Notes under the pieces: model-generated
Database searches by the model: none
Seen by the model: the letters and a program-made list of their open reading frames with translations, nothing else
What the model was told of the DNA's origin: nothing
Program-made: the position numbers and the translations under genes
Assembly: GCA_011033025.1 (NCBI GenBank)
Contig: WFMF01000028.1
Location: forward strand, 1-64,000
Origin: Beroe forskalii
Lineage: Eukaryota; Ctenophora; Nuda; Beroida; Beroidae
Reading direction: 5' to 3'
Length of the DNA: 64,000 bases
In this document: positions 31,560 to 63,710 of the stretch, one piece after another
Numbering within the stretch: the stretch's first letter is position 1
Layout of the letters: every line of letters starts with the position of its first letter

Positions 31560-33640
31560 ACCCCCCCTCTCAGTCTTATATCTCACTGACTTCTAACTCC
31601 TCAGGCTATGAATTACTCCTCACCCCCTGAGGCGCCCCCCTCTCAGTCTACACTATCTCACTGACTTCTAACTCCTCAGGCTATGAATTACTCCTCACCC
31701 CCTGAGGCGCCCCCCCTCTCAGTCTACACTATCTCACTGAGTTCTAACTCCTCAGGCTATGAATTACTCCTCACCCCCTGAGGCGCCCCCCCCTCTCAGT
31801 CTACACTATCTCACTGACTTCTAACTCCTCAGGCTATGAATTACTCCTCACCCCTGAGGCGCCCCCCCTCTCAGTCTACACTATCTCACTGACTTCTAAC
31901 TCCTCAGGCTATGAATTACTCCTCACCCCTGAGGCGCCCCCCCTCTCAGTCTACACTATCTCACTGACTTCTAACTCCTCCCTCGAGACCCCCCTCTCAG
32001 TCTACACTATCTCACTGACTTCTAACCTCAGGCAATGAACTACTCCTCACCCCCATCACCCCCCTCTCAGTCTACACTATCTCACTGACTAACCCCTGAA
32101 TCACCCCCCTCAGACTACACTATCTCACTGACTTCTAACCTGAACTACTCCTCACCCCCTGAGGCGCCCCCACCACCCCCTCTCAGTCTACACTATCTCA
32201 CTGACTTCTAACTCCTCAGGCTATGAACTACTCCTCACCCCCTGAGGCGCCCCCATCTCCACCTCTCAGTCTACACTATCTCACTGACTTCTAACTCCTC
32301 AGGCTATGAACTACTCCTCACCCCCTGATGCCCCCCACCCCCCTCAGTCTACACTATCTCACTGACTTCTAACTCCTCAGGCTATGAACTACTCCTCACC
32401 CCCTGAGGCGCCCCCCTCTCAGTCTACACTATCTCACTGACTTCTAACTCCTCAGGCTATGAACTACTCCTCACCCCCTGAGGCGCCCCCTCTCAGTCTA
32501 CACTATCTCACTGACTTCTAACTCCTCAGGCTATGAACAACTCCTCACCCCCTGAGGCCCCCCTCACCCCTCTCAGTCTACACTATCTCACTGACTTCTA
32601 ACTCCTCAGGCAATGAACTACTCCTCACCCCCTGATGACCCCATCTCCCCCCCCTCAGACTACACTATCTCACTGACTTCTAACTCCTCAGGCTATGAAC
32701 TACTCCTCACCCCCTGAGGCGCCCCCCATCACCCCCCCTCAGTCTACACTATCTCACTGACTTCTAACTCCTCAGGCAATGAACTACTCCTCACCCCCTG
32801 AGGCCCCCATCCCCCTCTCAGTCTACACTATCTCACTGACTTCTAACTCCTCAGGCTATGAACTACTCCTCACCCCCTGAGGCGCCCCCCCCCTCAGTCT
32901 ACACTATCTCACTGACTTCTAACTCCTCAGGCTATGAACTACTCCTCACCCCCTGATGCCCCCCATCACCCCCTCTCAGTCTACACTATCTCACTGACTT
33001 CTAACTCCTCAGGCAATGAACTACTCCTCACCCCTGAGGCGCCCCCCACCCCCCCCTCAGTCTACGTTGCCCATCACCCTCTTAGTCTACACTATCTCAC
33101 TGACTTCTACCCCCTCAGGCAATGAACTACTCCTCACCCCCTGAGGCGCCCCCTCTCAGTCTACACTATCTCACTGACTTCTAACTCCTCAGGCTATGAA
33201 CTACTCCTCACCCCCAGATGCCCCCCTCCCCCCTCTCAGTCTACACTATCTCACTGACTTCTAACTCCTCAGGCTATGAACTACTCCTCACCCCCTGAGG
33301 CGCCCCCTCTCAGTCTACACTATCTCACTGACTTCTAACTCCTCAGGCTATGAACTACTCCTCACCCCCTGAGCGCCCCCCCCCCCCACCACCCCCTCAA
33401 TCCTACACTATCTCACTGACTTCTAACTCCTCAGGCTATGAACTACTCCTCACCCCCTGAGGCGCCCCCACCCCCTCTCAGTCTATACTATCTCACTGAC
33501 TTCTAACTCCTCAGGCAATGAACTACTCCTCACCCCCTGATGCCCCCATCACCCCCCTCTCAATCTACACTATCTCACTGACTTCTAACTCCTCAGGCTA
33601 TGAACTACTCCTCACCCCCTGAGGCGCCCCCCATCTCCAC
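31560..33640 (+). repeat. 27-unit array of GPCR splice acceptor + start codon
   Basis: Twenty-seven units of about 55-85 bp. The core is CACTATCTCACTGACTTCTA, then ACTCCTCAG, then GCTATGAACTACTCCTCACC and CCCTGAGGCGCCCC. The first part looks like branch point, polypyrimidine tract and AG; the rest is the start codon and first codons of the GPCR. The last unit is the gene's own 5' end at 33600. Units differ in the length of their C-run and in single bases (GGCTATG / GGCAATG). Confidence 0.9.
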
Positions 33641-34814
33641 CCCCCTCGACCAGATAACAACCGTCATCATCCTCCTCCTCATGATATGCGGCGTCCACTT
33701 CAACCTCCTGGTGCTCTACCTGTTCGGCAAGCGGCGTCACTACCGCCTGCCCTCCCGTCTCCAACTCTTCTGCCTGGCGGTGGACGACATGGGCACTGCC
33801 CTCCTGGTGGAGCCCCTGGTCGTGGCTATGTTCTACCGGGGTGACGCCTTCGAGCGGAGCGACCTGCTGTGTCGGGTGTTCTCCAACCTGCTCCACGTGT
33901 TTCCATGGGGCTCAATAATCAGTCTTATTGTGCTGAGCTTTACTCGTGTTGTCATAGTGATCTACCCCCTCGCTTACAAGGTGTGGGTAACCAGGCAACG
34001 CATCATGCACGTCATCCTCGCTAAATACGTCTTTATAACCGTCTTCCTGGTGGTCTCCAACCCGCTCTGGCATGTCTTCTTCATCCCGAACATCCAGTCC
34101 TGCTTCGTCAGCTACGATCAGATGATAGCAGGTGACAAGGTGGTGCCGCACATCAACGTCATCCCCTACATCGTTCTCCTGGGCAGTGTCATTATCGTGC
34201 TGCTCTCTGCCGTCGTCATGGGCCAGATATTCAGACAGAACTTCTGTGGCTCGGGAGCCCGGAGGGTCGGGGCCCAGAACAGGGCCCAGATGCCGTGCAT
34301 AGCACGGGAGCTCTTCATTCTGGTGGTTATCTTCATCCTGACGAACATCTCCATCCCGCTGCTGGCCCTCAAGAACTACCTGCCCTGGAACCTGTCCCCT
34401 GACAGCGAGGTGGTCTTTGCGCAGATCGCTAAGATACTCTTCTACACGGGACCGGTAGCTAACCCCGTGATATACGCCTTGCGGAGGGAGGACTACCGGA
34501 GCAACCTCCACGCTTCCATCAACCTGACCATCAAATCCAAGAAACTAGCGCGACACACCCTCATAGCAGAGGCAGGCCTGCATCTCGTGGTGTGCACCAA
34601 GGACCAATCCAAGGCCCGTCACCTGCCTCCGGGATTCATCAGGAAGTGTGGTAGTGTGGCGTCCTTGCCGCAGCCCTACAAGTTTCCAGTGAGGGATCAG
34701 AGGAAGATACTGACCAGGACCAGGTCAGCCTCCCTGGATATCACGTCCGGGTTCATGGCGTTGGTTAAGAAGGATAAGGGGGTGGTGTATAAGAATAATA
34801 CGGCTGCTCTGTGA
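33600..34814 (+). CDS. class A (rhodopsin-like) G protein-coupled receptor, 404 aa
   Basis: An intronless frame with seven hydrophobic segments. TM1 contains GVHFNLLVLYLF; TM2 LFCLAVDDMGTALL with the conserved Asp; TM3 follows Cys near CRVFSNLL and ends FTRVVIVIYPL, where DRY is replaced by FTR; TM6 is LFILVVIFILTNISIPLLAL; TM7 is ILFYTGPVANPVIYALR with NPVIY. An N-glycosylation site (NYS) is at residues 2-4, and the roughly 100-residue C-tail is Lys/Arg/Ser-rich. The receptor acts at the plasma membrane; the ligand is unknown and I see no clear subfamily. The CDS is clearly GC-richer than its surroundings. The start chosen is the last ATG of the upstream array; many near-identical ATGs precede it. 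FTR in place of DRY is unusual. Confidence 0.9.
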   Translation: MNYSSPPEAPPISTPLDQITTVIILLLMICGVHFNLLVLYLFGKRRHYRLPSRLQLFCLAVDDMGTALLVEPLVVAMFYRGDAFERSDLLCRVFSNLLHVFPWGSIISLIVLSFTRVVIVIYPLAYKVWVTRQRIMHVILAKYVFITVFLVVSNPLWHVFFIPNIQSCFVSYDQMIAGDKVVPHINVIPYIVLLGSVIIVLLSAVVMGQIFRQNFCGSGARRVGAQNRAQMPCIARELFILVVIFILTNISIPLLALKNYLPWNLSPDSEVVFAQIAKILFYTGPVANPVIYALRREDYRSNLHASINLTIKSKKLARHTLIAEAGLHLVVCTKDQSKARHLPPGFIRKCGSVASLPQPYKFPVRDQRKILTRTRSASLDITSGFMALVKKDKGVVYKNNTAAL

Positions 34815-34976
34815 CAATAACAACACGAGTGTAGGGTTCGAAGTTAAGACCTGGAATAAGGTCTTGGAGCAATTATTGAATTGACGTGAAATGTGAATTG
34901 ACAATGTTTGACGTAGTATTCTGTGGTCATCTGATCGAACCAGAATTGGAGCAATTCCACAAGCGATTTGATTCCA

Positions 34977-34982
34977 AATAAA
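34977..34982 (+). terminator. candidate polyadenylation signal
   Basis: AATAAA about 160 bases after the GPCR stop codon, the first canonical hexamer downstream of it. Confidence 0.5.
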
Positions 34983-35638: not shown

Positions 35639-37105
35639 CATGTCACCAGGTTGAGGTAGAACAAGTCGAGACTTCATAAACTCATCCATCTTCTTCCATA
35701 CTGCCCATACTGATACATAACCTAAAGTGGAGGAGAGCGTCAGTTATACATTCAATGGAGGCATTTCAATCACATTTTGTAAGATCAATTAGAATTTGCG
35801 AAGAAAATTTTAACGGAAATTTTGTAAAATCAATCTATCATTGTGTTATATAGATAATCAGATGAAAGTATATTTTCAGGGCAATTCCGATTTATCAAGA
35901 ATTTCAAAAATGATAGCGATTAAGATAGGTACGATGAAAAGCGAATGATAAAAGATATTTCTAAAACTGAAAACATTTCAAACGTATCGAATATTCGAAT
36001 AGATAATTGAATAAAAACAATGATTCATCACTCTTTCCTATTAGTAAAATTTTAAAAACCTGTAGGCATAACCAACAGTGAACATACGATAAAAACTAAA
36101 AGGTCAGATAAATTGTGTATGATGGAAAAGCATCAGTAAAAAGTAAGATAATTCAAAACTGGTCATTTGTTATTGACGAAATAAACATCAACATAATCAT
36201 TACTCTGAAAATTGTAAAATGGTTAAAAATGTAAAATGGGATAGAAACTGTGAAATGAAAATATGAATACTTGTTCCTGTTTCACTCAGAATACTTGTTC
36301 CACTCCAATGGTCTAATAATGTTACAAGCAATATCATCATGATTATGCTCATGATAACGAATCAATCATCACCTTGATCGATTAAATTCAGTAAAAAATT
36401 AAGAAGGAAGTGGAAAACAAAATAATTCATCTCACTTTTCTAACTAATAAGGTGAGGAAGGACAGTAACGTAGTGTGAAGCAAATAGAACACTATAAATA
36501 GGTTCTAGATCTACCACAACGACGAGGAAAGTTTGGCCATAGGTGTGGGCGCAAAGGGCTTTTCGACATTTAATCCAAAAACGTTTCAGACCTAATCAGC
36601 TAATTTACTTCACACAATGCTACAATTCCGAATTCCAACCTTTATTCCACATTTGTAAAGACAATGATAATGTCTTCACTCTCAATAAGATTCAGCATCT
36701 TCACGAATAATAATCAATCCTCACAAGAAAAGAAAAAACAAAGTTACCCAGCAGCTGACAAGGACTTGTCCAAATGGCGGAGTAACACTGTTGGAATCAT
36801 CGTCTTTAAACAGACCTGGCAAAGATGACAAGTGACAAGCTGGTCATCAAGAAAATACAAAAATCATGAAAAAATACGAGCGTAGTGCATACCGAATATC
36901 CCGATTATGTTTGTTTTCAACGAATTTTGATTTTGTGCATGATTAGATATGAAACCAACATATATCATGCTATAACTGGAATTTTAACAATAACTCACTC
37001 TCAGCGATGCTCCAGTAGAGGTGCTCGGAAAAGCTCGGCCCCACTACAGTCTCCTTGACAATGCACCTGATCCCACACCGCGAGGAGGCTACCCGCATGT
37101 CCCTC
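35639..37105 (-). CDS. two internal exons of an unrecognised gene (partial)
   Basis: Exons 36999-37105 and 35639-35721 have good acceptors and GTGAGT donors and are phase-compatible (phase 1 between them, phase 0 out). The first encodes RDMRVASSRCGIRCIVKETV, then VGPSFSEHLYWSIAE; after the junction comes SYVSVWAVWKKMDEFMKSRL and VLPQPGDM. I do not recognise the protein. The VWAVWKKMDEF stretch recalls the HU-like start of CCDC81-type ciliary proteins, but that is a weak guess. Neither the first nor the last exon was found. The acceptor of the upstream exon is repeated three times (37080-37215). Confidence 0.5.
35722..36998. other. intron of the preceding partial gene
   Basis: AT-rich, no ORF or repeat structure of note. 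If the two flanking exons belong together this is a 1277-bp intron. Confidence 0.4.
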
Positions 37106-37215
37106 CTGGGGGGAGGAGGTTTAAAATGAAATGCATGTCCCTCCTGAGGGTTGAAGGTTAAAATCAAAAGTATAAATCATATTCCTCCTGAGGGGGGAAG
37201 GTTGAAATCAAATGA
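37080..37215 (-). repeat. triplicated splice acceptor
   Basis: On the minus strand three units read TTTAAACCTCCTCCCCCCAG / GAGGGACATG, TTTTAACCTTCAACCCTCAG / GAGGGACATG and TTTCAACCTTCCCCCCTCAG / GAGGAATATG. The last one in gene order is the acceptor used in the model. Confidence 0.8.
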
Positions 37216-39226: not shown

Positions 39227-39388
39227 CTATATAACCACGCGCCAAGAGAGACTTTTGATCTTCACATATAGCACTCACTGGCGTTCGTACTATATGAGCA
39301 TTAGACACTCACTGCGTTCATAATTTAATTCACCACGCTGCGCGTGGCGAATTGCAAAAGTCTCTCTCTAGTCGCGTGGTTATATAGT
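39226..39388. mobile_element. MITE overlapping the 3' end of the LDLa-GPCR
   Basis: Terminal inverted repeats are ACTATATAACCACGCGCCAA on the left and, inverted, CTAGTCGCGTGGTTATATAGT on the right, each with AGAGAGACTTTTG inside. The GPCR reading frame runs into the right arm and ends within the element at 39325. Confidence 0.7.
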
Positions 39389-41639
39389 CTATAAACATCA
39401 GCTGTGATCCAAATGTCAAAAGGTGTGAGAAACCATTTCTGAACAAACTTCCTCCAAAAGTTCCAGGTTTTCTTCATGACCTTCTTGTAGACCCCGCTAT
39501 AAAACACCGGGTTAAGGAAGCTGTTGAGTGGGATGAAGACCAGTGCAAACAACTCGAATACCAGGGGCGAAGCTGGCTCCGAAGCTATGTACTCGAAGTA
39601 GATAATGGTACCGATGTACGGTAACCAACAGGCAATTTGAGAGCCTATCATAAGGGCTACTTTCACGGTCATTTTACGGCACTGCAGATTCCTAACTCGG
39701 CTGGCCCCGGGATCGTTCTTTCCAACTGCAGCCAAGGCCCTCTTTAACTTTCTTTGTTCCGTCAATATTTTCAAGTAGGTGAGGCAAATGAATGCCAAAA
39801 CAACCATCAATCCAGAACAATAGCATATCTTGTAGATGTTATAGGATCCCTGGGACTTGAAGATGTTATGGATGCAGAGTCCTGTGTTGCCATAGTAACT
39901 CGTTTCCTTGATGTCGAATATGTCTTTCTTAGAAGTTGTATTCTTCAAGGTGTCAACGATCGTGTAGACATCATCAGTAGTGTTTGAGCGCCCCACAACA
40001 GCCTCGTAAAGCATTATTAACCGGGGCTGATCCACCGGATTACGGCTGAAGAAGGGGTTTTGGTCAAGGTTTGTGAAGTAAATCTCCGTTCTAAAGAATT
40101 CTCTGATGACTGCTATGGGCATCAAGGGTAAGTAGGAATGGAGCCAATTAAGGATGTCAACCACAGCTACCAAGAGAATAATAGACCTCTGCTTTACAAC
40201 GAATCCGATCTCACAGCACTTCCTGTACCTGATGTAACTCATCATGGCGAGGGTGAATAGGGAGCCATGGGCAGCCGAGGAGAAGATCATCCCGAAAACA
40301 GAACAAATCCAACTTGATCTCCACCCACTCTCCAACAAGCAGTACCTGCCTTTGAGTCTGATAACCAGAGCCGAGCTCACGATGCCTCCTAAATACAGCC
40401 CCATCATGAGATCGTGACTGAAAAGGTTGATGAGGAAAATCCTGTCTATTTGCTTGATGTTGGAAGGGCACTCCATGCTGAAACACCTGTGTATCTGCTT
40501 GCAGTTCATGACGATTATGAGTAATGACAGCAGTCCAGTAACCACCACAACCACCTTGGACTGTATCAGAAAGTCTGAGGATGAGAGAGACTGCCCGTGA
40601 CACAGGTACCACACTCGTCAGCTCCATTGTTACAATCCTTCACATGGTCACACACCTTGTCCAGTCCCACCCAGTCAGCCCTATCTGGACTGCAGTAGAA
40701 CCTCCCCGGACACCCTATCTCATCTGCTCCTGACTCACACTGAACCTCACCATCACAGATGGTTCGCATGGGCTGCAGTTCTGTGTAGGAGTTGACGTTG
40801 CATTGGAAGTCAAAGTCATTAACGGAACCCCAGAGGAGTCTGTCACAGAACTTGATCCAGTTGCCTTCATCAAACCCTTGAAAACGCGAACAGTGTGATT
40901 TGCAATAGTGGGAGACACTTCTAGAGTCAATTATGTCCCCCCTTTTACTGTAAGCATATTCCATGCAATCGAATAATGGAAAATCATACATCTTTCTACC
41001 TCTGAACTCGTTACAAGACAGATCGAGTATTTTGGCAGCATCATTCCCATATATTTTTGGTGGAAAATTTGCTGTTAAATTCCAACAATTTCTCCTGGGA
41101 ACACAGACCCGTTCTCGTTCATCAGAATATATAAGATACCCTGGACAAAAACACTCATCTGACCCATCCAGGCAATCCTGTATATCGTTGCAAAGTCTGT
41201 CGAACGTCAAGCAACCAGAACCGTCAAAACAGTAGAAAGTATCGGAAGTATAACCCTTCCTACTGGCACAGCCGCACTCGTCCGTCAGACAAATGGTCTT
41301 TCCGTCACATACCAAGCTCCTGTCATCGATTTCACAAAACCAATCGAACTTATTCGCAATTCCCAGTAGGGGGAAGTTTCCTGCGAACACCAAATTATCA
41401 TCAAAGTGAAACCTACAATAGAAAGAGTCACTGGCGGGAAGCATTGTCTTATTATAATACACTAAATATTCCTCCAATTCCGTAATGAAGTTTATGCTAC
41501 TAGTCATCAATTTTTCGAAGCAACTCGGTTTGTCGATCCTGTCCGGTGCTTGTAATTTCTTTTGAGAGTACTTGTAGAGATTGTAATCGGAGGACCCTAG
41601 GTCCACCAACACCAGCAGTAGGATCCAGCTCGACAACAT
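39325..41639 (-). CDS. LDLa-containing LGR/relaxin-receptor-like GPCR, with a frame break near 40.6 kb
   Basis: The start is the ATG at 41639 (MLSSWILLLVLVDLGSS, a signal peptide); the frame is open further upstream without an ATG. The ectodomain holds LDLa-like modules at residues ~124-165 (TFYCFDGSGCLTFDRLC...DCLDGSDECFC) and two more before the membrane (ICDGEVQCESGADEIGC; VCDHVKDCNNGADEC). No leucine-rich repeats are seen. The 7TM part is LGR-like: NLFSHDLMMGLYLGG in TM2, SWICSVFGMIFSS in TM3, YIRYRKC for DRY, NPVFYSGVYKKVMKK for NPxxY. Ectodomain and 7TM are in different frames that overlap at 40566-40614. A single-base error or mutation explains this; so would a 35-nt intron at 40575-40609 (GTACCT...CATCCTCAG, phase 1) giving ADECDFLIQ. 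The last ~20 codons come from a MITE. Confidence 0.8.
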
Positions 41640-42513: not shown

Positions 42514-45500
42514 TCAGGGTTGAAATACGAAGTAAAGTGCTGTGTTCCCCAACCAGTGAGATTCCCTCCCCGAACCTGCCAATCCGGGAGATTCAACCGC
42601 CCAACCGGCCAACCTGTGATATTCCCACCAGTCGGGGTGGGAGGAGTTGACTGCTAACCTGTGGGATGCCCACCAGTCGGGGTGGGAGGAGTTGACTGCT
42701 AACCTGTGAGATGCCCACCAGTCGGGGTGGGAGGAGTTGACTGCTAACCTGTGAGATGCCCACCAGTCGGGGTGGGAGGAGTTGACTGCTAACCCAGGGA
42801 GATGCCCACCAGTTGGGGGTGGGAGGAGTTGACTGCTAACCTGTGAGATGCCCACCAGTCGGGGTGGGAGGAGTTGACTGCTAACCTGTGATATTCCCAC
42901 CAGTCGGGGTGGGAGGAGTTGACTGCTAACCTGTGAGATGCCCACCAGTCGGGGTGGGAGGAGTTGACTGCTAACCTGTGATATTCCCACCAGTCGGGGT
43001 GGGAGGAGTTGACTGCTAACCTGTGAGATGCCCACCAGTCGGGGTGGGAGGAGTTGACTGCTAACCTGTGAGATGCCCACCAGTCGGGGTGGGAGGAGTT
43101 GACTGCTAACCTGTGAGATGCCCACCAGTTGGGGTGGGAGGAGTTGACTGCTAACCTGTGAGATGCCCACCAGTCGGGGTGGGAGGAGTTGACTGCTAAC
43201 CTGTGATATTCCCACCAGTCGGGGTGGGAGGAGTTGACTGCTAACCTGTGAGATGCCCACCAGTCGGGGTGGGAGGAGTTGACTGCTAACCTGTGATATT
43301 CCCACCAGTCGGGGTGGGAGGAGTTGACTGCTAACCTGTGAGATGCCCACCAGTCGGGGTGGGAGGAGTTGACTGCTAACCTGTGAGATGCCCACCAGAT
43401 GGGGTGGGAGGAGTTGACTGCTAACCTGTGAGATGCCCACCAGTCGGGGTGGGAGGAGTTGACTGCTAACCTGTGAGATGCCCACCAGTCGGGGTGGGAG
43501 GAGTTGACTGCTAACCTGTGAGATGCCCACCAGTCGGGGTGGGAGGAGTTGACTGCTAACCTGTGAGATGCCCACCAGTTGGGGTGGGAGGAGTTGACTG
43601 CTAACCTGTGAGATGCCCACCAGTCGGGGTGGGGAGGAGTTGACTGAGGAGTTGACTGTGATATTCCCACCAGTCGGGGTGGGAGGAGTTGACTGCTAAC
43701 CTGTGAGATGCCCACCAGTCGGGGTGGGAGGAGTTGACTGCTAACCTGTGAGATGCCCACCAGTCGGGGTGGGAGGAGTTGACTGCTAACCTGTGAGATG
43801 CCCACCAGTCGGGGTGGGAGGAGTTGACTGCTAACCTGTGAGATGCCCACCAGTTGGGCTGGGAGGAGTTGACTGCTAACCTGTGATATTCCCACCAGTC
43901 GGGGTGGGAGGAGTTGACTGCTAACCTGTGAGATGCCCACCAGTCGGGGTGGGAGGAGTTGACTGCTAACCTGTGAGATGCCCACCAGTCGGGGTGGGAG
44001 GAGTTGACTGCTAACCTGTGAGATGCCCACCAGTCGGGGTGGGAGGAGTTGACTGCTAACTCAGGAGATGCCCACCAGTCGGGGTGGGAGGAGTTGACTG
44101 CTAACCTGTGAGATGCCCACCAGGCGGGGTGGGAGGAGTTGACTGCTAACCTGTGAGATGCCCACCAGTCTGGGTGGGAGGAGTTGACTGCTAACCTGTG
44201 AGATGCCCACCAGTCGGGGTGGGAGGAGTTGACTGCTAACCTGTGAGATGCCCACCAGTCGGGCTGGGAGGAGTTGACTGCTAACCTGTGATATTCCCAC
44301 CAGTCGGGGTGGGAGGAGTTGACTGCTAACCTGTGATATGCCCACCAGTCGGGGTGGGAGGAGTTGACTGCTAACCTGTGGGATGCCCACCAGTCGGGGT
44401 GGGAGGAGTTGACTGCTAACCTGTGATATTCCCACCAGTCGGGGGTGGGAGGAGTTGACTGCTAACCTGTGATATTCCCACCAGTCGGGGTGGGAGGATC
44501 ATGACTGTTAACCTCTGATATTCCCACCAGTCGGGGTGGGAGGAGTTGACTGCTAACCCAGGGATGCCCACCAGTCGGGGTGGGAGGAGTTGACTGCTAA
44601 CCTGTGAGATGCCCACCAGTCGGGGTGGGAGGAGTTGACTGCTAACCTGTGATATTCCCACCAGTCGGGGTGGGAGGAGTTGACTGCTAACCTGTGAGAT
44701 GCCCACCAGTCGGGGTGGGAGGAGTTGACTGCTAACTCAGGAGATGCCCACCAGTCGGGGTGGGAGGAGTTGACTGCTAACCTGTGAGATGCCCACCAGT
44801 CGGGGTGGGAGGAGTTGACTGCTAACCTGTGATATTCCCACCAGTCGGGGTGGGAGGAGTTGACTGCTAACCTGTGATATTCCCACTAGTCGGGGTGGGA
44901 GGAGTTGACTGCTAACCTGTGGGATGCCCAACAGTCAGGGTGGGAGGAGTTGACTGCTAACCTGTGATATTCCCACCAGTCGGGGTGGGAGGAGTTGACT
45001 GCTAACCTGTGAGATGCCCACCAGTCGGGGTGGGAGGAGTTGACTGCTAACCTGTGAGATGCCCACCAGTCGGGGTGGGAGGAGTTGACTGCTAACCTGT
45101 GATATGCCCACCAGTCGGGGTGGGAGGAGTTGACTGCTAACCTGTGATATGCCCACCAGTCGGGGTGGGAGGAGTTGACTGCTAACCTGTGAGATGCCCA
45201 CCAGTCGGGGTGGGAGGAGTTGACTGCTAACCTGTGATATGCCCACCAGTCGGGGTGGGAGGAGTTGACTGCTAACCTGTGGGATGCCCACCAGTCGGGG
45301 TGGGAGGAGTTGACTGCTAACCTGTGATATTCCCACCAGTCGGGGTGGGAGGAGTTGACTGCTAACCTGTGAGATGCCCACCAGTCGGGGTGGGAGGAGT
45401 TGACTGCTAACCTGTGGGATGCCCACCAGTCGGGGTGGGAGGAGTTGACTGCTAACCTGTGATATTCCCACCAGTCGGGGTGGGAGGAGTTGAGGTGGAG

Positions 45501-48500
45501 AAGGTGGGACCAGCAGGTGCGACATGTCGTGTGGTGGGAGGCGTAGGTATTACACCACGTCCTGTTGGGAGGGGTGGTTGCAGGAGGGGGGGAGGTCTGT
45601 TCCAAAAAGTAACAATTGAAGATTAGCAATGAAATATTTACTCACGCTCTTTTTTGAAATAAGTCTGATTCGGAAAAGATCCCATAAGAACTGCTTACGG
45701 TTGCTGTTATTGGGATCAATTAGTGGTGGCAGAAGTTTTGCCAATATCTGGAGTCAAAAACTGGTATCAAATAATTAAGGGTTGAAAGCGTTTGAAAAGC
45801 CAAAAAACTAAAAATGTCATGGTAAGGGTACACACCCCAATACTTTGGCTCTCATAGCCAGCTTATAGAACTGTAAGCTCAAGTGTCGTTCCTCATCAAA
45901 CAAAGGCGCTGCCAGGTATGTGGAATTGTAGTGACTCATCTCATTCTCGGAGCAGCCCAGATTAGACAGACAGGTATACAGGTCCCTGAGAGAGAGGGGG
46001 TGAATGAAGGAAGAGATTATAATCATCAGTTGTGGAATGAGTTCTATTACTAAAAGAGTAAAAGGGGGACGGGCCAGGAAGACAACACTCAAAAGAGGAG
46101 GTTGTGGCGCGCAATAGCATCTGGTTGGATGAATTTTAAGTAGGAAATAACAATATCTAGCATCCCGTTAACTCAACATTGGATCCCGTTTATCCCTATC
46201 ACCTGCGCTGCCTACAAGCGTCCTCTTCCAATGAATCCCTCCAGGAGTCCTCTTCCAGCCAGAGGAGTGTGGAGATGTCGGAAGTTAGCGGGTACTCGTG
46301 GAAGCGTCCCCCAGAGCGAACTTCCAACGGCAGTGAGAAAGGTTCCAGATGCTGCAGACACTTAGGGGCACTGCAGGGGAGTGTATAAAAACTTTATTGT
46401 GTCAGCGTACTATACAGTGACATGGTGTTACTATATAGAGCAAACACTCGTGACCCAGAGGCACTGGGGAGTGATATTTTACGATCTTACTATAAAAGAA
46501 AACAGCGCCCTTAGGCAGTTTCGAAAGATATGTATCCAAGCAATTATATGGTTTGAATTTCTGCATTTTCCTGCCCGGTTTTCCACCCACCTTGCTCGAC
46601 GCCGGACTGCCTGTTCACCCACCACTGCAGATGGGATTCCTTGCACCCTGACGCCAGGAGTTGGGATGTTTTGGCAGTGATGTTGTACTCGATGAGCAGC
46701 TTGGTGTTGACATCTTCACATTCTGTAGGGATGAAAGAATCACTAGATAAATTGATGCTTTTTCATCAAAAGAATGGCGTTAATATCATGAGGATTGGGG
46801 GGTCGAATGATAGATAAAGGTCATATTTTTCGGATAAAGGTCATACTTTTCGGATAAAGGTCATATTTTTCGGATAAAGGTCATATTATTCGGATAAAGG
46901 TCATATTATTCGGAGTTTTTTGTAATAACTCCCATTTTCTCTGCAACTCACGGGTAGTGTCGATGGACTGGAGGCATATGACGGAGTAGAGCAACATGTC
47001 ACAGGTGTTGTGGGGGTGGTAGCCTTGGTTTTCAATATAACCAGCTAGCGGAAACTTATAGAACAGCTCTGAGGAGAGGCGGTGTCAGCTAAATACACAA
47101 TTTCGGTGTGGATTTTTCATATTCCACTCGGCTTCTCCTCGAGAAAAATGCCCATATTTACAGCTGAATAATGTGTTGTAACAGTATATTTACCACGTAC
47201 CTAACCAGTAGTGCCAGGTGTATTTCCTGTAAAAGGTGGAACACCTTCGGTTTACATTCCCTCTGCAGTCCGTTCTCGTAATCTGAGGATCGTTGATAAA
47301 TCAATGACAACCGATTTGGTAGCTCAAGTTGAAAATCTAATTCTAAAAAAACATTTACATCACGCCATTCGACTTTTTTTTAGAGAAGATGAATATGATC
47401 ACTTGAATAACACTTTTCGTACTCATTCAAACACGTATCGTACTCACTTAATAAACACGTATCGTACTCAATGGAACACGTATCGAACCCACTTCAACAG
47501 GTATTGCACTCAATTTTATACGCATCACACTCATTTCTACGTACTCATTTTTACTCATTTCAACAATAATTAAAATAATAAACACTATCCTACTCACCTT
47601 AAAACGTATTGTACGGCTTAATTCCGGGTTGGAGGTGGTGTAGTAGTAGGTTGTTGTGGGATTTTCATCAACTTGAGACGAATTTGCTGTTCTATTATTG
47701 TGCAGCAATGTGTTTTCTCTCCAGCTGACATTCCATGACAGTACTGCTGCTGGAGCTACAGTGGGAAAAACAGTTGCTTCACTGGAAAGATTGCGTGAAG
47801 TTTGTGTTGCTTGGTTGACAGCGGGTGAAGAAGTTGCTGATATCGTAGGTTCAGGTGATTGATCTGTTGAATCGGGAGGTTCACTCGATGGAATTGAGCC
47901 AGTGCTTACACCAGTTGATAAGGTTGTTTTTACGGCAGCATCTGGTGTCATGGTAGCAACACTTTTTGATGCTGTCATGTTAACCTCACTTGCTGCTGTT
48001 TTTATGGTAACTTCACTGGCCGGTGTTGTCATGGTAGCATCAATAGCTTTTGTCATGGTGACATCACTAGCTGATGTTGTCATGGTAGCACCAGCCGGTG
48101 TTGTCGTGATCACACCACTATAAGCAGGTGTTGTCATGGTAGCAGATGGGGAAGCTGTTCTCGTGACAGCAGATGGGGATGCTGTTGTCGTGCTGCTGAC
48201 AACAGTTGTCCAGGACCCGGAAGCGGTGGAAGGCCACCAGTTTGGAGTGAAGCGCTGTTCAGTGGTGTCATTTGCCAAACCACACGATACCCTGAACAAG
48301 AAAAAAAATTGCTTAAATATATCAAAACATCTGTGAAAATTGGGAAATTTACGTGGCAGCAGAAAAATCGAATACAAAGTGAATACAAAGTGAATACAAA
48401 GTTTTCCACATGAGCAAGTTGAAACCACGAAAGATTATGATCAGTGCAATAAAAAAATTTCGTTCATACTTTGGATCTTGGCTCATTTTACGAAGGTGAT

Positions 48501-51500
48501 TGTATTGTCTGATCATCCTGGGATATGAATCGGTGCTGTAACTTGGGGACCCGTCGGTGAACTCAACCTGATAAGAGAAAGAAAGGGTGGATTATTGGTT
48601 GACGAGAAGGGGGATTAAATGGAAGCCCACAAAGGACTGACACTTTAATGGGAGGGGAAACTGCTGTCTGAAAATGTGGGCGATTAAAAATGTGGGAAGT
48701 AGGATAAAGCAGCGCGCAGGATGTAGAATCGAATGATTCAAAGATTGGTACATGAACACGAGGAAGGAAGCGAGTAAACTATAGGACACGATATCAGAAT
48801 TACAGTGTTTAGGGAGCAAGTTGAAAGCGTTTAATGATACGAGAAAGTTTGTAAATCGGGATCTTTGGGATAGCATGTCGTCGTCAGTGTAACGATGTGA
48901 GGGGGATTGTTTTTATTTTTTGGGGTCAACAAAAAGGGAAATTATGTAGTGAGATGTTGCGATTAAGCATTTTAGGATAAGCATCTTTAGGCGATAGACT
49001 CTATCAGAGCGGCTTTGAATTCAGATGATGGAGTTAGTTGTTCTCTCACCTGCCAGCAGAAAGCACTTTCCTCCCAGAGCAGCATAGCCCGTCTGATGTT
49101 CGTACAGAAGTGGGTGATGTTGTACTTGCTGACATGTCGGGACTCTGACATCTCCAATATCTGCGCCGTGAGGTCGTCCCTCTCCCGGTCAAAACACCGA
49201 CCTGATCAGGGTAGGAAGATACCTCACAAGACATGTTTGTATATGGAACGAAATTTGGCACAAGAAGAGAAGAATAGGAGATGTGAAAAGCCTGATGCGA
49301 TCGCTGAGTTGATGTCTAGTCAAAACCTTCCAATATATGCCTAAAATATCATTATCAATTCATTTCGATACCAGCAATACCCCGCTCCTAACTCAAGGGG
49401 GGGGGGTCTAACTTACCGCACACATCTTCTGGGGTGAGGAATCTGTGCGGATCAGAGAACCTGTCCCTGACCGTCACGCCCTCGAGCGGTAGGGACACGT
49501 GGGGGTCAGTGGGTGCGAAGTCAGCCCAAGTGAGAGTGTGGGCGAGGGAGGGTGATCTGTAGTAGGAGTAGTCGTGGAGGGAGGAGTAGGTGAGGTAGGC
49601 GTTACCAGTGTACAGGTGGGGCAGCATGCAGCTTGGATAGAGAGGAGGTGGCAAATCATGGAATAGTTTATCAGAATGAATTGAAATACCTTTCCAAGGA
49701 TCAGAAAATAGATTTTGATTTCAATCGATTAAAGACACTGTAATTTTCATTGGCGTCAAAATATGTCCCTTTCTGATCAGGTTTATTTTGGTTTATACCC
49801 CCTCCCAACGGGCTGCACGGGTCTAACTGCATACATCCCTCGTGCAGCCCGGCTGCACCATCGTGAAGCATCCCATTATTGGCAGGGTAGGCGCGTGTCT
49901 ATGTATTCCAGAGACTCACTTGTAGGTGGTGTGAGCGAAGGAAGTATCATTTCTGAAGAGGTTGGTGATGTAAGCGTATACAATGAGTCCCTTGAAGGGT
50001 CGAGTAGCACCAAATGCGGGATACAAACTCCTTCCTGGAACATGGAAGAGTGAGCACTGAGGAGTTTTTTAGTCCTAGTTGTTCTTTTAAAACAGAGAAT
50101 TTTCAAGAAATTATGGAATTACAAATTTGAGTTTGGACTTCAGTCTGTTAAAAATCCCCTCCTCGATCATTAACTTATTGAAAATGGAAATTCACTGATA
50201 TTTACCGCTCTTACCCAAATTGACAATACTTACTTAAGGTGACAACACTTACCTAAGGTGACAACACTAACCCAAGGTGACAACACTTGCCCAAGGTGAC
50301 AACACTTACCCAAGGTGACAACACTAACCCAAGGTGAAAACACTTATCCAAGCTGACATCACTTACTCATGGTGATAACACTTACCCAAGGCAACAACCC
50401 TCACCCATGGTGACAACACTTACCCAAGGTGACAACACTTACCCAAGGTGACACCACTTACCCAAAGTGACAACCCCCGTTTCCAGCGCTCCCAGGTTTC
50501 TCTCCCTTAGCCATCCCTCTTTTCCACCACGCCGGAGTGTCCTGGTACACAGAAGTGAGCTGCACCATGAACTGACCACGCTGCTTGTACCAGGCCGTCA
50601 CATGACCTTTGTAGTGGTCGTACAGGATGCAAATAAACCGTAACAGGTCACGCGGAGACTGGGGGATTTCATTGTGTTTTAAGGGGGATAAGCTGATCTG
50701 TAAAAGCGTATATTTTAATTTTTCATGTCCAATGCAAAAATAAATAGGATAGTAATTTCAGATTGGAAACTGTAATTGTCATTAGAATCACTTTGATCTC
50801 CGAACACATCTACCTCGAATGTCATAATGAAAAAAATCTTTCTCACGGTGAGTTGGCAGAGTGCAGATGTCGAGGTAGTTGCAGAGCTCAAAAGATAAGA
50901 AAAAGTAAAAAGATGACCTTATAATAATTATGTAGTCCCTCTCGCTTTCTTACCGAAGGGTCGGGGTAGCTGTACGGTATGTTCCATTTGGTGGTGTGGT
51001 TGGAGTCCGGAGTAGCTACCACGAAGAAGAGTTCTCTCCAAGAGGCAATCACACTCAGGGTAAAGTGACCGCTAAGTGTCGACTCTGGGGAAATCACACT
51101 CAGGGTAAAGTGACCGCTAAGTGTCGACTCTGGGGAAATCACACTCAGGGTAAAGTGACCGCTAAGTGTCGACTCTGGGGAAATCACACTCAGGGTAAAG
51201 TGACCGCTAAGTGTCGACTCTGGGGAAATCACACTCAGGGTAAAGTGACCGCTAAGTGTCGACTCTGGGGAAATCACACTCAGGGTAAAGTGTCCGCTAA
51301 GTGTCGACTCTTGGGAAATCACACTCAGGGTAAAGTGACCGCTAAGTGTCGATTCTGGGGAATCCAATGTCTTATCTATAGAGGTGTATGGGTAAACTAC
51401 AAACATAACAAAATACTGCATATCGATTTTCTAATTCTGGGATTGACATGAGAGGGAAGAGACTAAACTAAGTGAATCATCTGGGGGAAATCACACTACA

Positions 51501-54500
51501 GTTGTAAAGTGAGCTGCCATCTGCGATGTAGGGTAAATCAGCAGGTGACAAAGGGAAACGGACAGTCGACTCTGGGGAAATCACACTCAGGGTAAGGCTG
51601 GGCCACCCAGTTCCGGATTCTGGGGAAATCAACACAGTTTAGAGGGAACTTGGGGAAAAAAGAAAAGAGTTCAGTAGAGGTGAAAGATCAATGATTGCTA
51701 TAATCGTGTGGAATATCTTAATAAAGTAAAACCTGAATTTTGTACGTTGGGGAAATCAAAGGGGAGGTTGCAGGCATCTACCTGTCCAGCCCCACATTCA
51801 GTCCCAGGGTAAATCATACAAGTTATTTGAGGTCAGCAACAAGCCATAACTAACCAGTACAGAATGTGACGAACCTCGTGCCAATACCTCAGGGTAAATT
51901 GGCTAAAAGTGTCGACTCTGGGAAATCACACTCAGGGTAAAAGCTATTCTTAAGTGTCGACTCTGGGGAAATAATGTCTACAAGATTGGAGTTACTATAT
52001 CCTGGAAGGGGGAATTCGTCGAATGGTTAAGTTAAATATACAAAATGATTTATAGTAATAAACAGAATGATTTATCGTTATTTGATGAGAAATAGGGCGA
52101 GTAAAGTTAATACAAACATCGTTTTTGTGAAAAAACATGAGATCGTAAAGTGAAATTTACCTTAGTACCTTGGAAGGACATGAATGATTTATCGTTATTT
52201 GATGAGGAAGGACATAAAGGATCTAAAGTTAAAATCGTTTTTGTGAAAAAACATGAGATCGTAAAGTGAAATTTACCTTAGTACCTTGGAAGGACATGAG
52301 ATCTTACTGTAAAATGTACCTTGGAAGGACATGATATCGTACAGATCGTCTGGATGCGCAGGCGAGTATTTGACACACCAAGCATTGGGCCGGGGGGCGA
52401 ACCCCACTTCATATTTTTCAGGAGTGAACGGTCGAACCACACCGTCCATAATGTTGTCACTCGCATTCCCTGTGAACTGGTACACGTGCTCGTCTGAGAT
52501 GGACCCGCGTGAGGGAGTGTGTGAGAGTGGAAAGGGAGTTTGAGGTTGGGTAAAGGAAGAAATTGGACATGGCTAGGTTTTTCTTGTTTCAGCCCAGTAA
52601 TTGTAATGAACTTGATTATGCCCATTATTTCATAGGCGGAAAGTGGTGTTTGGTAATGGACTTGGAATTTGATAATTTCCATGCTTACCTCTCGCACACC
52701 AACAGAGTCTCACGAAGTTTTCCTTCGTAGCGTCACACCTTTCAACTGCAGTGTAAGCCCTATAACTCCGCATAGTTGACCTGATCCTTATTCCTTCACA
52801 TATCGGACTATCACCAACTTCAAATCCTGAATTTTTATTTTGTTATATGATTAAAACATTCAATTATGATCAAATATTCAAGAAATCTTTACTCCTCACC
52901 ACAAGAAACCGATATTTCCGTCTTGTAAACATGCCAAATTAGAATAAAATCCTCGCCTGGCTGGTAGGTGCCTTGGTAGTCTCTCCTCAGCTCCTCAGCC
53001 TTGTCAACAGTACAGTTGTGCTGTGCGATGGTCTCCATGACATCAGGATAGGGGGTGTCAGCAGAACAAGTCATGGAGTGGGTGGAGCAGGCAGTGGTGC
53101 AGGACTCTCCTGGGGCGCTCCACACGTGGTCTGAGAGGGAGAGGGGGAGTGGAGTGGGGGCGTGAGAGGAAGGAGAGGGAGTGAGGCCTCACTCCCTCTC
53201 ACGCCCCCACTCCACTCATGAGGGGGAGTGAGAGGGGAGTGTGAGAGGGAGTGAGAGGGAGTGAGGTGGGGGAGTGGGGGGTGAGAGGGGAGACTGGAGT
53301 GAGAGGGAGTAGAGTTGGGGAGTGGAAGGGAGTGGAGTGGGGTGGAAGTGGGTGGGGGAGTGAGAGGGGAGAGTGAGAGGGAGTGGAGTGGGGGAGTTGG
53401 ATGGGGTGGAGTGGGGAGTGAGAAGGAGTTGAGTGGGGAGTGAGAAGGAGTGGAGTGGGGAGTGAGAAGGAGTGGAGTGGGGAGTGGGAGGGAGCGGAAT
53501 GGGGGAGTGAGACGGAGAGAGGGGGGTAGGAAAGGTGGTGTGAGAGGGAGTGGGGGAGTAGGTGGGAGTGGGGTGAGGAGTGAGAGGGAGTGGGGGAGTA
53601 GGTGGGAGTGGGGTGAGGAGTGAGACCTGACAGGGAGTTGAGTTGGAGTGAGAGGAAGTGTCGGAGTGGTCTGACGGGGGACTGGGAAGGATGGAGTGAA
53701 AACAAGCACTTCAGCTGTTTTGTGGATAAAAATTACACATAAAAAGTTAATTCACCTTGACCTACCTTTGTAAGGGTATGGATCCCCTCCTAAGTGCAAG
53801 AAATTATTCTTCGCGTCTTCGAACAAGGTCTTGTCATAACATCCTGCAACATGAAGGATTTAAGTATCAAACTTGAAATAGTATAGTAGTATACCAACTG
53901 TAGCATGGAATGATCGCAATTCACATCATAGCACACTGTCACCGGATGCGAAGTAACAACTACAAGTGCAATATTTCATCATTCCATAGATTACTGGAAA
54001 GCTCATGAAACTCGGAATGATAAAAGCCGGTGCATTAAAATGCTGAAGTCAATAAATCATGCGCGTTCATTACAAATAAAATGACACTCTATCATAAAAA
54101 GCGGTGTCATTTGCCAAATAGTGTCACAGTGCTGAATTAGTGAATAAGGATTAATCATACAAAATTTCAGATGGTCTCACCGTGTGCCTTGGCCATCTGT
54201 TCTGTCTGCTGCATGCACATCCTGGCGCTGTAGAGGTGTGCTACACGTTTGTCAAAGATGTAACCGAGGGAAGGGTTGTACGGACTGGATGAGAGGAACG
54301 CGTTGCAGAAGAACGGGTCACAAACTGAGATAAGATACACGAATTACCACAGTGGTGAAATGGGTCATTAACTGAAATTACACTGAATTACTTATTACGC
54401 TGAAACTTATCAAATTCAGAAGAATGTAACTTCATTACTACTAAAATTAGGGGGATGGGCCTGCGAGGGCCCAGGAGGTGCCAGGACAGAAAGCTGCTGG

Positions 54501-59889: not shown

Positions 59890-62800
59890 CTAATCCGCGA
59901 CCCCGTCCCTGGCAACCCAAAGACACGCCGTCCTGTCGGCACTGCACGTGGCAAACGCTTGCTTAGTCGGGTGCCATGTCGTCATGGTAACCTTATCTCT
60001 GTGGGTACCTAGGGATGGAATGTAAAGGGGAACGGATAATTTAACAGTTAACTCTAAACATTTCACCTCACGAAACTTTACCACATGATATTTCAATTAT
60101 AACCAAGCGTTTGGGCTAGGGTGAGGGCTCAGGTAAACAATTATTTCAGGTAAACAATTAGTTATTAATTTCTTGGCACTTTCACAATCAATATATAGAA
60201 TAAATATATTTTATATCTGAGAAATAGTGCTGCCTTTCTTTAAAATGAGCTGTGATGATCTAAAGATTGGTAATACTCTGAGGACTGTAATGGCCTCAGC
60301 AGTCATACCACAATACTGGAGGGTAATGTGGCTAATTTATTATCACTTTATACAGCCAATCAGACAACCAGCCCCATACTCATAGTCTGCATAAGGGCCA
60401 ACGGACATTCCCTGTCTGTAACTTGGACAATGACCTCTCCAAATCCAAACTATGGCCGCAAAGCCAGTTGTGACTCACTTCTGCACCTTTGAGTGAGCAT
60501 AATATACATTTAGTTTACATATTCGTTAGTAAATTTGATAGATTTCAAACATTTTAACTGCTTTATCTGCAAAGGCTCATTACAGTTGTGTATACAAACA
60601 ATGATGCGTTATATATAGGCTACCTATACTAAATTAAATAAGGAATAAATAAATAAATCATGAAATCTTTTCTAAATCCTTTAAAACCTCTTCTAGAGTC
60701 CAATGCCTTGACTCTAGTTCTTAACCAAACCCAAACTCAAGGGTTTGGGTTAGGTTAAGGTTATTGTCAGGTTCAGGGTAGAGAGATAAAGTGCCGTGAG
60801 GTGAAATGTCTGAAGTTGTAAGTTCAGGCTCCCCAAACACGATCAATCAAAATAAGAAGCTGTAATGAATAATTTTAAACCACCAAAAACCAACTCGTTA
60901 ATTTCACTGTGGAGCATTCTATGTATAACTTATCTTACTTGATGTTTAGATAATTATAGGTAAGCAACGAACCTAGTATCTCAGTGCAAGGGATGTCAGG
61001 ATTCAGCAGGACCTGTTCAGCACACGTTAGAGCTACCGTTCCATCGTACGATCCCGACAAGATGTACCTGGGCAAGGAGGGGATTCAGGAGTTTAGGGAT
61101 GTATTCTGGGATGTTTACACAGGGGTGCGTGTATTGGACCTCTGAGTGTTACAGGAATTGAGGGATATCTAACACTATTCACTTTGTCTGCACGTAAAAC
61201 CCCTTAATTACCCTTATGGTGTAATACTAATAAATAGATTGAGATTTTGGCGAATGCGACCGTGCAGGTTTTTACGCAGACACTAAACTTTGGTCTCGAC
61301 GTTCCATTTCCCTTACCCTTTTGTGATTTGTCACTTTTAGTTTTATAAATTTTCACGAAGAGACTGATTGGAAAGAGGGGAAACTTATAATTCATATTTC
61401 AAAGTTCTCAGTACCCATAGTAATAACTATTCACTGAAAAACAGTTATTTTTGTTGAAAGGCTCGATCCGTGACCCCTTTTTCTGTTGAGAATTCATCGA
61501 TACTGAATGCATGGCATTACAATGCTAACCATCAATGTAATCGCTAGGAACAAAGCAGTGCAATCATATTCTGAAGTAAGCGTACAAAAGAAGGACTTTC
61601 CGTAAATCAAATCAAGGTGAACATACGGTTTTTAGAATTGAAAATAAATGAAACTTTGTTCCATATAAGCAATAAGCATCGAGAAAACATATTGTTGTAG
61701 GGAAAAGATGAGGTGTTAAAAGCAGAGAATCATGCTGTATTGCTGTCATTAAGGATTCATTGCGGTGACATTGTGTGCAGTTCAGATTTGGTGTTTGATG
61801 ACTTAGTGTCATGAATCATGACCGCTAGGAGTTTTTAATTAGTTGATTGTTCGGGACCAATGGGCAACAGTAATTGTGAGTAAGTCCAGGGTATATCTCA
61901 CTCATATTGAGATATTCCAAAAAATTTGAGAACAGCATATACCTCGAATCCGGATTCTTTGGAAGTAAAAAATTAAGATGTGAGATATCGCATGTTGGAG
62001 AAATGATAATCATTTAAATGTAGTTGCCCGTGGGCACGTGTTTTACAGTTAGATTAGTATGATGTACGCACTATTGATGGTGGTCGAGTGGAAATTTAAG
62101 AAGGCGTTCGCACATTGACTCGCGACCTTAGCTACGCAAGGATTTAGAAATAGAGCTCACCTGGGGTTGCTATAGAGTTAATAGAGTTAGGATTTATACC
62201 TGGGGTTGCTATGGAGTCAAGAGAGTAGAGATTTAGAAATAGAGTAGACCTTGGGTTGCTATAGAGTCTAATAGTCTATGGAGAAAGGACTTCTAAAGCT
62301 CACCTGGGGTTGCTATAGAGTTAATAGAGTTAGGATTTATACCTGGGGTTGCTACAGAGTTAATAGAGTTAGGATTTATACCTGGGGTTGCTATGGAGTC
62401 GATGGAGTTAGGATTTGTACCTGGGGTTGCGATAGAAGTGCACTGATTTGCAGGGCGCTGGAGTGTGGGGTGAGAAAGCTGCCAGCAACTTTCCCATCTC
62501 AATGTCATAGAGCATGCAGAGGCCGTCATCTCGAGCAGCACAGAGCAGGTTACCGAAGTTGTTCAGGGAGAGAGAACCAACGCAGGAATTACCTGGGATG
62601 GGGATAGTGTGACATAGAGTGACATAGTGTGACAGAGAGCGACATAGGGTGACAGAGAGCGACATAGGGTGACAGAGAGCGACATAGAGTGACATGGAGT
62701 GACAAAGTTTGTCATTTAGCTACCACAAACATTAGTTTATACTGTAAGATGGTGGATTGGTGAGTAATGGGCTCACTAAGATAGTTTGTCATAGCTTGAC

Positions 62801-63710
62801 AGGTCATGGGCATATGTACAAAGCGGAGCGTAATATCGAGGAGGATTGGGGATCTTTGTACTTGGAGGGTTAGTGCTGTTGGGCGAGTAAAACGATGCGT
62901 GATTTTATCAAAGCTCTAAGTCAATGGTTCAATGGTACTAAGGTTCCTGATTACTGACCAGTGCCTATACTTCCATGGCACTTAGGTTCCTGAACACTCA
63001 GTACTCACCTTAAGCGCCTATGGCAGCGCCCATCAACCTGATTACTCACCTTTAGCGCCTATGGCTGCGCCCACCACGCGGGAACCTCACCTTTAGCGCC
63101 CATGACAGCACTCACCACCCAGACCACTCACCTTTAGCGCCTATTGCGGCGCCCACAACTCGGGAACAGAGGTTGGTTCTGCGGTCCCAGAGCCTAATGG
63201 TGGCGTCCTCACTCCCCGTCACGAACATGTCCTTGTGGGAGGTGACGGCGTGGACGGTGGCTGTGTGGCCGCTGTACGCCGCCACTTCAACCCCTGTAAT
63301 GCACGAGGTAAGGTGAAAAGTAAGTTCGGTTCGTCCGGAAAGGTTAAATGCTACGTCGGTATATACCAACTGGGACAAATGGTACAAGAGGCAAAATGTT
63401 CATAAATTAGGGACCTGAAAAGTAGAATTTAAGGAAATAAGTTCCAGAGAAATGGCTAACATATTGCAATAGGATAAATAGGATAGAAACCATTCTCAAT
63501 ATCTAATCAGTGAGGTGGACTTCATACCTTTCTCAATATCGGTGAGGTGGAGTAAGTTATCCCCGCCCCCAGCACTCAGCATCTGGCAACTGTCCAAGAA
63601 GTGAATGTCCCTCACAGTTCCCTTGTGGAAGGAAAACTCCCTGTCCGTGCCCGTGCTGATGCAGTTGTCAGCATCGAACCCAACAGCCACTATCGTCTTA
63701 TCGTTGGAAC
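59890..63710 (-). CDS. WDR47: WDR47 orthologue, C-terminal WD40 exons (partial)
   Basis: Exons in gene order: 63528-63710, 63132-63293, 62421-62592, 60973-61067, 59890-60008; phases agree (1, 1, 1, 2, 1) and the frame ends at TAG. They encode about 243 residues of a WD40 propeller. Motifs in order: GSNDKTIVAVGFDADNC; TVRDIHFLDSCQMLSAGGGD; YSGHTATVHAV...FVTGSEDATIRLWDRR; LCAARDDGLCMLYDIEMGKL; YILSGSYDGTVALT; THRDKVTMTTWHPTKQ; TCSADRTACLW. The opening GSNDK, CMLYDI, SGSYD and SSADRT-type blocks follow WDR47 (nemitin), a cytoskeleton-associated protein with an N-terminal LisH/CTLH that would lie beyond 64000. The penultimate intron is long (60009-60972). The donors of exons 2 and 3 are repeated in tandem. 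Confidence 0.85.
62150..62440 (-). repeat. 39-bp x 7 splice-donor array in WDR47
   Basis: On the minus strand the unit is ATAGCAACCCCAG followed by GTATAAATCCTAACTCTATT and AACTCT. The first unit is the end and donor of exon 62421-62592 (CGCAACCCCAG|GTACAAATCC); six more follow in the intron, each keeping an AG|GT. The next exon also begins CCCAG|GTACATC, similar to the donor side. Confidence 0.9.
62600..62700 (-). repeat. 10-bp array beside a WDR47 acceptor
   Basis: Units of GTCACTCTAT / GTCGCTCTCT lie directly upstream of the acceptor ATCCCCATCCCAG of exon 62421-62592, expanding its pyrimidine-rich stretch. Confidence 0.75.
63000..63140 (-). repeat. quadruplicated splice donor in WDR47
   Basis: GGCGCTAAAG|GTGAG at the donor of exon 63132-63293 recurs three more times in the intron (about 63091, 63048, 63007) in units of about 40-45 bp that also repeat the exon end (GTGGGCGC.GCCATAGGCGCT). 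Confidence 0.85.

What the first reader, a model, noticed from the sequence alone, without database searches (positions are those of the whole stretch)
31560..63140. Tandem arrays repeatedly built on exon-intron junctions
Seen directly: eight arrays (31560, 37080, 42614, 50229, 51045, 52156, 62150, 63000) have units that contain the splice site of the adjoining exon plus flanking exon and intron bases, in four genes on both strands. Two more (53140, 62600) expand pyrimidine tracts next to acceptors. Chance placement of minisatellites would not hit splice sites this often in about 30 kb. Known background: tandem duplication of an AG|GT-containing segment is a proposed route to new introns. Inference: in this lineage splice junctions are hotspots of tandem duplication, so introns arise or grow this way and each junction carries many competing sites.
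Basis: partly seen in the sequence, partly recalled or inferred. Interest (0 to 1): 0.93.

Follow-up and report, generated by a model that had tools for sequence, protein, structure and literature searches.

The report
Minisatellites grown across comb-jelly splice junctions
In a comb jelly (Beroe), short repeats have grown from DNA spanning exon-intron borders in three neighbouring genes, adding look-alike splice sites and lengthening introns, but it is not shown that splice borders attract such repeats across the genome.

Summary
The genome is the ctenophore Beroe forskalii (COX1 100% identical over 435 aa). Homologues from Mnemiopsis and Bolinopsis support a 20-exon gene that owns five of the eight arrays; the others lie on a WD40 gene and a GPCR: three genes, not four. 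Five arrays strictly span a supported junction, one starts at an exon end, one holds exon-end copies 21 bp away, and the GPCR array (about 26 units of predicted acceptor plus start codon) is single-copy in a paralogue. At most junctions the copies beyond the exon-proximal one meet stops or shift the frame; the two 45-bp arrays stay in frame near the exon.

Chance in the window: 5 of 15 non-exonic arrays, expected 1.28, P=0.005, uncorrected for choosing the window. Outside it, no excess: 3 of 152 predicted junctions against 32 of 912 intron positions. Genome-wide, donor octamers recur in tandem 2-5 times more often than controls, yet array loci are equal (ratio 1.08, P=0.82).

Verdict: minisatellite growth, probably tolerated because the exon-proximal site suffices; it lengthens introns. 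Hotspot and intron-birth claims are unproven.

The parts
31561..33647 (+). Array of about 26 units (about 75 bp): branch-like TTCTAAC, acceptor-like CTCAG, start codon and first codons of a GPCR
   Evidence: single copy in the C403 paralogue
33600..34815 (+). Rhodopsin-family GPCR; only the last ATG of the array reads it (404 aa)
36999..37105 (-). Exon 20 of gene A
   Evidence: match to P0003
37095..37168 (-). Array over the acceptor of exon 20 (TRF 2 copies; a third by reading, to about 37210)
42611..45493 (-). 64 units of 45 bp: end of exon 19 plus donor CACAG|GTTAGC
   Evidence: one unit-equivalent in homologues
45457..54322 (-). Gene A, exons 1-19 (exon list)
50210..50474 (-). 14 units of 19 bp with a donor, from the end of exon 7 into intron 7
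51047..51362 (-). Seven 45-bp units over the acceptor of exon 6; all seven acceptors in phase and open
   Evidence: one unit-equivalent in homologues
52065..52299 (-). Two 116-bp units holding copies of the exon-5 end and donor, 21 bp from exon 5
53219..53660 (-). Pyrimidine-rich array 89 bp upstream of the acceptor of exon 3
60973..63710 (-). Four exons of a WD40 gene ('WDR47-like' is recall)
   Evidence: Pfam WD40; the last exon was not in that query
62159..62436 (-). 39-bp units (two TRF runs) carrying the donor of exon 62592-62421
62604..62708 (-). Array ending 12 bp upstream of the acceptor of exon 62592-62421
63002..63167 (-). 41/82-bp units carrying the donor of exon 63293-63132, four donor copies

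Best explanation
These are minisatellites born from short tandem duplications that happened to span a splice junction, in a genome rich in tandem repeats. After such a duplication, use of the exon-proximal splice site leaves mRNA and protein unchanged, so the extra copies lie in the intron and are nearly neutral. Slippage or unequal exchange then multiplies them; the intron lengthens and is strewn with spare donor or acceptor sites that slowly decay. Shown: the anatomy, the single-copy paralogue of one array, and the stops or frame shifts that make most extra copies useless. Inferred: the mutational steps, the use of the exon-proximal site, and near-neutrality.
For: Array units contain exon end plus intron start at supported junctions. 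One unit in the paralogue against about 26 here. Reading past the proper donor meets a stop after 14 nt (exon 7), 44 nt (exon 5), 10 and 17 nt (WD40 gene); copies lying before those stops (exon 7 at +13; exon 5 at +35 and +43) shift the frame; 23 of 24 ATGs in the GPCR array stop within 17-63 aa. Diverged copies of the exon-6 unit further up intron 5 look like decay. Repeats are common: 6.5-24.1% of the four sampled stretches. Outside the window junctions carry no excess.
Against: Within the window junction-spanning arrays exceed random founder placement (5 against 1.28, P=0.005), and donor octamers are over-represented in tandem pairs genome-wide, which plain neutrality does not predict. The paralogue is broken, so contraction there is possible. 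No transcripts, so site use is inferred.
Confidence: 0.72

Rival explanations
1. Splice junctions are mutational hotspots of tandem duplication in this lineage, for example through transcription-linked breaks at exon borders or microhomology in AG|GT and pyrimidine tracts.
For: 5 of 15 arrays in the window against 1.28 expected. Tandem pairs per single occurrence: AGGTAAGT 5.66%, AGGTATGT 5.58%, against 1.05-2.93% for four control octamers. With satellite-span loci set aside, donor loci are 1.84 times controls, P=0.022. A duplicated exon end with donor at a predicted exon on C35.
Against: Array loci overall 41 of 17,185 against 36 of 16,224, ratio 1.08, P=0.82. Outside the window 3 of 152 predicted junctions against 32 of 912 intron positions. 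104 other array units: no excess of splice-like sites.
Confidence: 0.18
2. The arrays are kept because they do something: they give length variants of the protein (the two 45-bp arrays) or regulated alternative splice sites.
For: Exon-6 and exon-19 units are multiples of three; all seven exon-6 acceptors are in phase without stops, and exon 19 stays open for over 500 nt.
Against: The other arrays shift frame or meet stops. Homologues have one unit-equivalent at exons 6 and 19. In the 19-bp array 2 of 14 units have lost GT by my reading.
Confidence: 0.07
3. Some of these introns were created by tandem duplication of an AG|GT-containing segment.
For: Units of the exon-19 array and of the 62.3-kb array contain both CAG and GT, so a unit could in principle be an intron.
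Against: No intron here was shown to be absent in a relative; intron positions of the homologues were not available.
Confidence: 0.02
4. Copy numbers are partly assembly artefacts.
For: A 45-bp x 64 array is hard to assemble; no reads were available.
Against: Copies differ from one another and unit lengths vary.
Confidence: 0.01

Closest known systems
Internal tandem repeats at exon-intron boundaries of human genes in segmental duplications (PMC2812944; passages seen)
   Same: Minisatellites (there about 30-bp units, 4 copies on average) at exon-intron boundaries, variable between paralogues, lengthening exons or introns
   Different: Here up to 64 copies, three neighbouring genes, sometimes both ends of one intron; no transcript data here, while the human cases have RNA support and report novel introns
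Potato RdRp intron gained by tandem duplication across an intron-exon boundary (PMC4974935; abstract and section list seen)
   Same: The duplicated segment crosses an intron-exon boundary
   Different: One duplication that made a new intron; here arrays of many copies, and no new intron shown
Drosophila introns from tandem duplication of coding proto-splice sites (PMC2891723; abstract and passages seen)
   Same: Tandem duplication supplies splice sites
   Different: There the duplicated sequence is exonic and gives novel intron positions
Repeat-rich ctenophore genome of Hormiphora californensis (PMC8527503; passages seen)
   Same: TRF marks 13% of that genome; nested intronic genes and spliced leaders are common
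   Different: The passages seen do not mention arrays on splice junctions

Membership tests
Minisatellites at exon-intron boundaries | Tandem units of minisatellite size overlapping an exon-intron border | tested here: met
   Five arrays strictly, units 38-82 bp
Minisatellites at exon-intron boundaries | Copy number differs between paralogues | tested here: met
   GPCR only: one unit on C403 against about 26
Minisatellites at exon-intron boundaries | Transcripts show changed splicing | not testable with these tools
   No transcripts held
Lineage-wide junction hotspot | More arrays on junctions than matched placement gives, genome-wide | tested here: inconclusive
   Window P=0.005; outside no excess; genome octamers high by pairs, equal by loci
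Intron gain by tandem duplication | Duplicated segment carries AG|GT or a splice site | tested here: met
Intron gain by tandem duplication | Intron absent at that position in relatives | not testable with these tools
   Gene structures of P0002 and P0003 not held
Introner-like mobile element | Near-identical copies dispersed in many genes | tested here: not met
   One array tested: the GPCR array matches itself and one paralogue only, 4 matches (lower bound, simple repeats skipped). Other arrays not tested

The most novel reading that the evidence does not exclude
In Beroe, exon-intron junctions are true birthplaces of minisatellites, which arise and expand there several times more often than elsewhere in genes; introns grow by accreting copies of their own ends, and junctions keep ladders of spare splice sites of which the exon-proximal rung is chosen by position.
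Probability: 0.2. Interest if true: 0.85.

Novelty: new variant of a known kind. Interest (0 to 1): 0.5.

Why it matters
Where intron sequence comes from, and how a spliceosome picks one of many near-identical sites, are open questions. Genes with 14 tandem donors, seven tandem acceptors or 64 tandem exon-end copies are natural experiments for both, and the single-copy paralogue shows that such a ladder can change within one genome. If transcripts and a genome-wide count showed a real junction bias, it would be a general route for intron growth; if not, the case still shows how junction-spanning repeats can be tolerated.

Tried and rejected
Ab initio gene finding: the first self-trained model learned the coding arrays as exons, so I retrained without array exons. 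It still merges or splits genes; the first version gave 185 exons against 34 on reversed sequence. Predicted junctions outside the window (union of both versions) are therefore only partly real.

Coverage test: supported junctions carry a local copy in 6 of 48, intron positions 45-300 nt away in 162 of 726; in the window as a whole 18 of 94 against 117 of 564. I do not read this as depletion, since an array rooted at a junction covers much intron; the founder test is the fairer one. It used 45449 as the exon-19 end, later mended to 45457; this does not change the class of that array.

Shuffled-unit test: arrays at 31-64 kb are donor-rich at the lowest threshold only (11 of 17 against 7.0, P=0.01; 5 against 3.6 and 2 against 1.8 at higher ones); 104 others are not, and are below shuffles for acceptors (4 against 7.7).

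Octamer test: excess by pairs, but large arrays dominate. By loci on C1-C247, AGGTAAGT is 1.06 times TGAATGGA and 4.60 times AGTAGGAT; two donors against two controls 1.08; 1.84 with 15 control loci set aside; AGGTATGT against AGTAGGAT 1.19 on C1-C451. Only two of the four donor-type controls were listed by place. The set-aside satellite was recognised by span from four printed matches, not by reading each locus. Of the acceptor-like octamer, 96 of the 100 listed pairs lie on C1, C2 and C10, mostly in two large arrays; its loci were not compared.

Also dropped: dispersed introner-like element (one array); a myosin-exon map for a homology-based junction sample, because the letters were not available.
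Full report
ORGANISM. The window is the first 64 kb of contig C336 of a 216-Mb, 1134-contig genome. Contig C1134 (13.3 kb) encodes a COX1 with TGA read as Trp that is 100% identical over 435 aa to Beroe forskalii COX1. Gene A has two relatives in the protein collection, from Mnemiopsis leidyi and Bolinopsis microptera.

GENES. On the minus strand, 20 exons from 54322 to 36999 join into 1115 aa without a stop, 40-42% identical to the two homologues over the N-terminal half and 30-34% over most of the rest. Exon 20 was found by searching with the homologues, which makes the 37080 array part of this gene. An LDLa/7TM gene (41738-39325, minus) lies inside intron 19. At 63710-60973 follow four exons of a WD40 gene (one search tested three of them; 'WDR47-like' is recall). 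On the plus strand lies a rhodopsin-family GPCR at 33600-34815.

ARRAYS. Exon 6: seven 45-bp units, about 38 nt of exon start and 7 nt of intron end; each acceptor is in phase and open, while the homologues have one unit-equivalent. Further up intron 5 lie diverged copies of that unit, and near its 5' end copies of the exon-5 end with donor, so a good part of this 1.2-kb intron is made of its own ends. Exon 7: fourteen 19-bp units with TTGG|GTAAGT or variants; 12 of 14 keep GT by my reading. Two readings of the true donor remain: a weak GTTGTC in the right phase, or the first GTAAGT with a shifted exon-8 acceptor. Exon 19: 64 units of 45 bp; 57 CACAG|GTTAGC sites against 62 unit starts. Exon 20: three acceptor copies by reading. 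WD40 gene: six CCCCAG|GT and four AAG|GTGAG donors. GPCR: 26 units, 24 with CTCAGGC[T/A]ATGAA; only the last ATG reads the receptor (404 aa), the other 23 stop after 17-63 aa. That site may be a cis acceptor or, since spliced leaders are common in ctenophores (PMC8527503, passages), a trans-splice acceptor; this was not tested.

WHAT THE COPIES CAN DO. Past the proper donor the frame stops after 14 nt (exon 7), 44 nt (exon 5), 10 and 17 nt (WD40 gene). The copies lying before those stops (exon 7 at +13; exon 5 at +35 and +43) shift the frame. So with the neighbouring exons as modelled, only the exon-proximal site gives the protein there. Exons 6 and 19, whose units are multiples of three, are exceptions.

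SINGLE-COPY STATE. The paralogous GPCR on C403, 84-86% identical in DNA, has one unit at the same place. It is split by a 3.9-kb insert with reverse-transcriptase-like frames (that label is recall), so it is probably dead and contraction there cannot be excluded.

CHANCE IN THE WINDOW. In the two genes with supported exons there are 16 merged arrays, one inside an exon. Of the other 15, five strictly span a junction. Random placement of founder units, rejecting exon-internal ones, gives 1.28 (SD 1.05), P(>=5)=0.005; with the two near cases (7) 0.0002. The window was picked for this feature, so this is not genome-wide evidence.

CHANCE ELSEWHERE. In the 244-kb sample I asked which predicted junctions have a second copy (at least 70% over 40 nt within 800 nt). 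Outside the window: 3 of 152, intron-side positions 32 of 912. In it: 18 of 94, and 117 of 564. One outside case looks convincing by eye: C35 (sample coordinate 10055), an exon end with donor repeated 124 bp downstream; no Pfam family was found for that predicted protein. Units of 104 arrays outside 31-64 kb hold no excess of splice-like sites over shuffles.

GENOME-WIDE. Same-strand pairs of an octamer 16-46 bp apart, per single occurrence: AGGTAAGT 455 of 8,045 (5.66%), AGGTATGT 510 of 9,140 (5.58%); controls TGAATGGA 201 of 10,531 (1.91%), TGTATGGA 66 of 6,271 (1.05%), AGTAGGAT 167 of 5,693 (2.93%), TAGGATGA 103 of 6,187 (1.66%); acceptor-like TTTTCAGG 637 of 19,494 (3.27%) against its reverse 180 of 9,235 (1.95%). 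Counting each array once on contigs C1-C247: two donors 41 loci, two controls 36, ratio 1.08, P=0.82; without 15 control loci that have the span of a dispersed satellite, 1.84, P=0.022; on C1-C451 AGGTATGT against AGTAGGAT 1.19, P=0.61. Donor-bearing arrays thus hold more copies, but a firm excess of such arrays is not shown.

BACKGROUND. Human minisatellites at exon-intron boundaries that alter splicing or make introns (PMC2812944, passages), a potato duplication across an intron-exon boundary (PMC4974935, abstract) and Drosophila introns from tandem duplication (PMC2891723, abstract and passages) are precedents. None of the titles and abstract starts listed in searches describes such arrays in ctenophores; these are short lists from an open-licence library.

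CONCLUSION. The simplest account is nearly neutral growth of minisatellites that happened to include a junction, in a repeat-rich genome (6.5-24.1% of sampled stretches). Growth of introns from copies of their own ends is directly visible. A mutational hotspot and the birth of introns remain possible but unproven.

Noticed in passing
window 39325-41738: An LDLa/7TM receptor gene lies on the same strand inside intron 19 of gene A (nested intronic gene); related LDLa genes are predicted at C336:67429-70115 and C25:340618-344280.
   Followed up: partly
L020, C403:393900-398270: The GPCR paralogue on C403 is interrupted by about 3.9 kb with reverse-transcriptase-like frames (label is recall), so it looks like a pseudogene.
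   Followed up: partly
window 54878-55553 and 56255-56894: Two arrays of one 172-bp satellite in opposite orientation, about 700 bp apart (TRF consensus units are reverse complements).
   Followed up: no
L012, C35:310055: A predicted exon end with donor is repeated 124 bp downstream: a two-copy junction duplication outside the window.
   Followed up: partly
L008, C25:323720-323870: 39-bp units each hold an acceptor-like CTCAG, 16 nt and a GTAAGT donor, like a repeated micro-exon, downstream of exons with a PB1 match.
   Followed up: no
G000 contig C1 and others: A dispersed satellite containing TGAATGGAGCCTAGTGGAGGC appears at several loci and inflates one control octamer.
   Followed up: no
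window 47973-48192: Coding repeats inside the Ser/Thr-rich exon 12 of gene A, a region much longer than in the two homologues.
   Followed up: no
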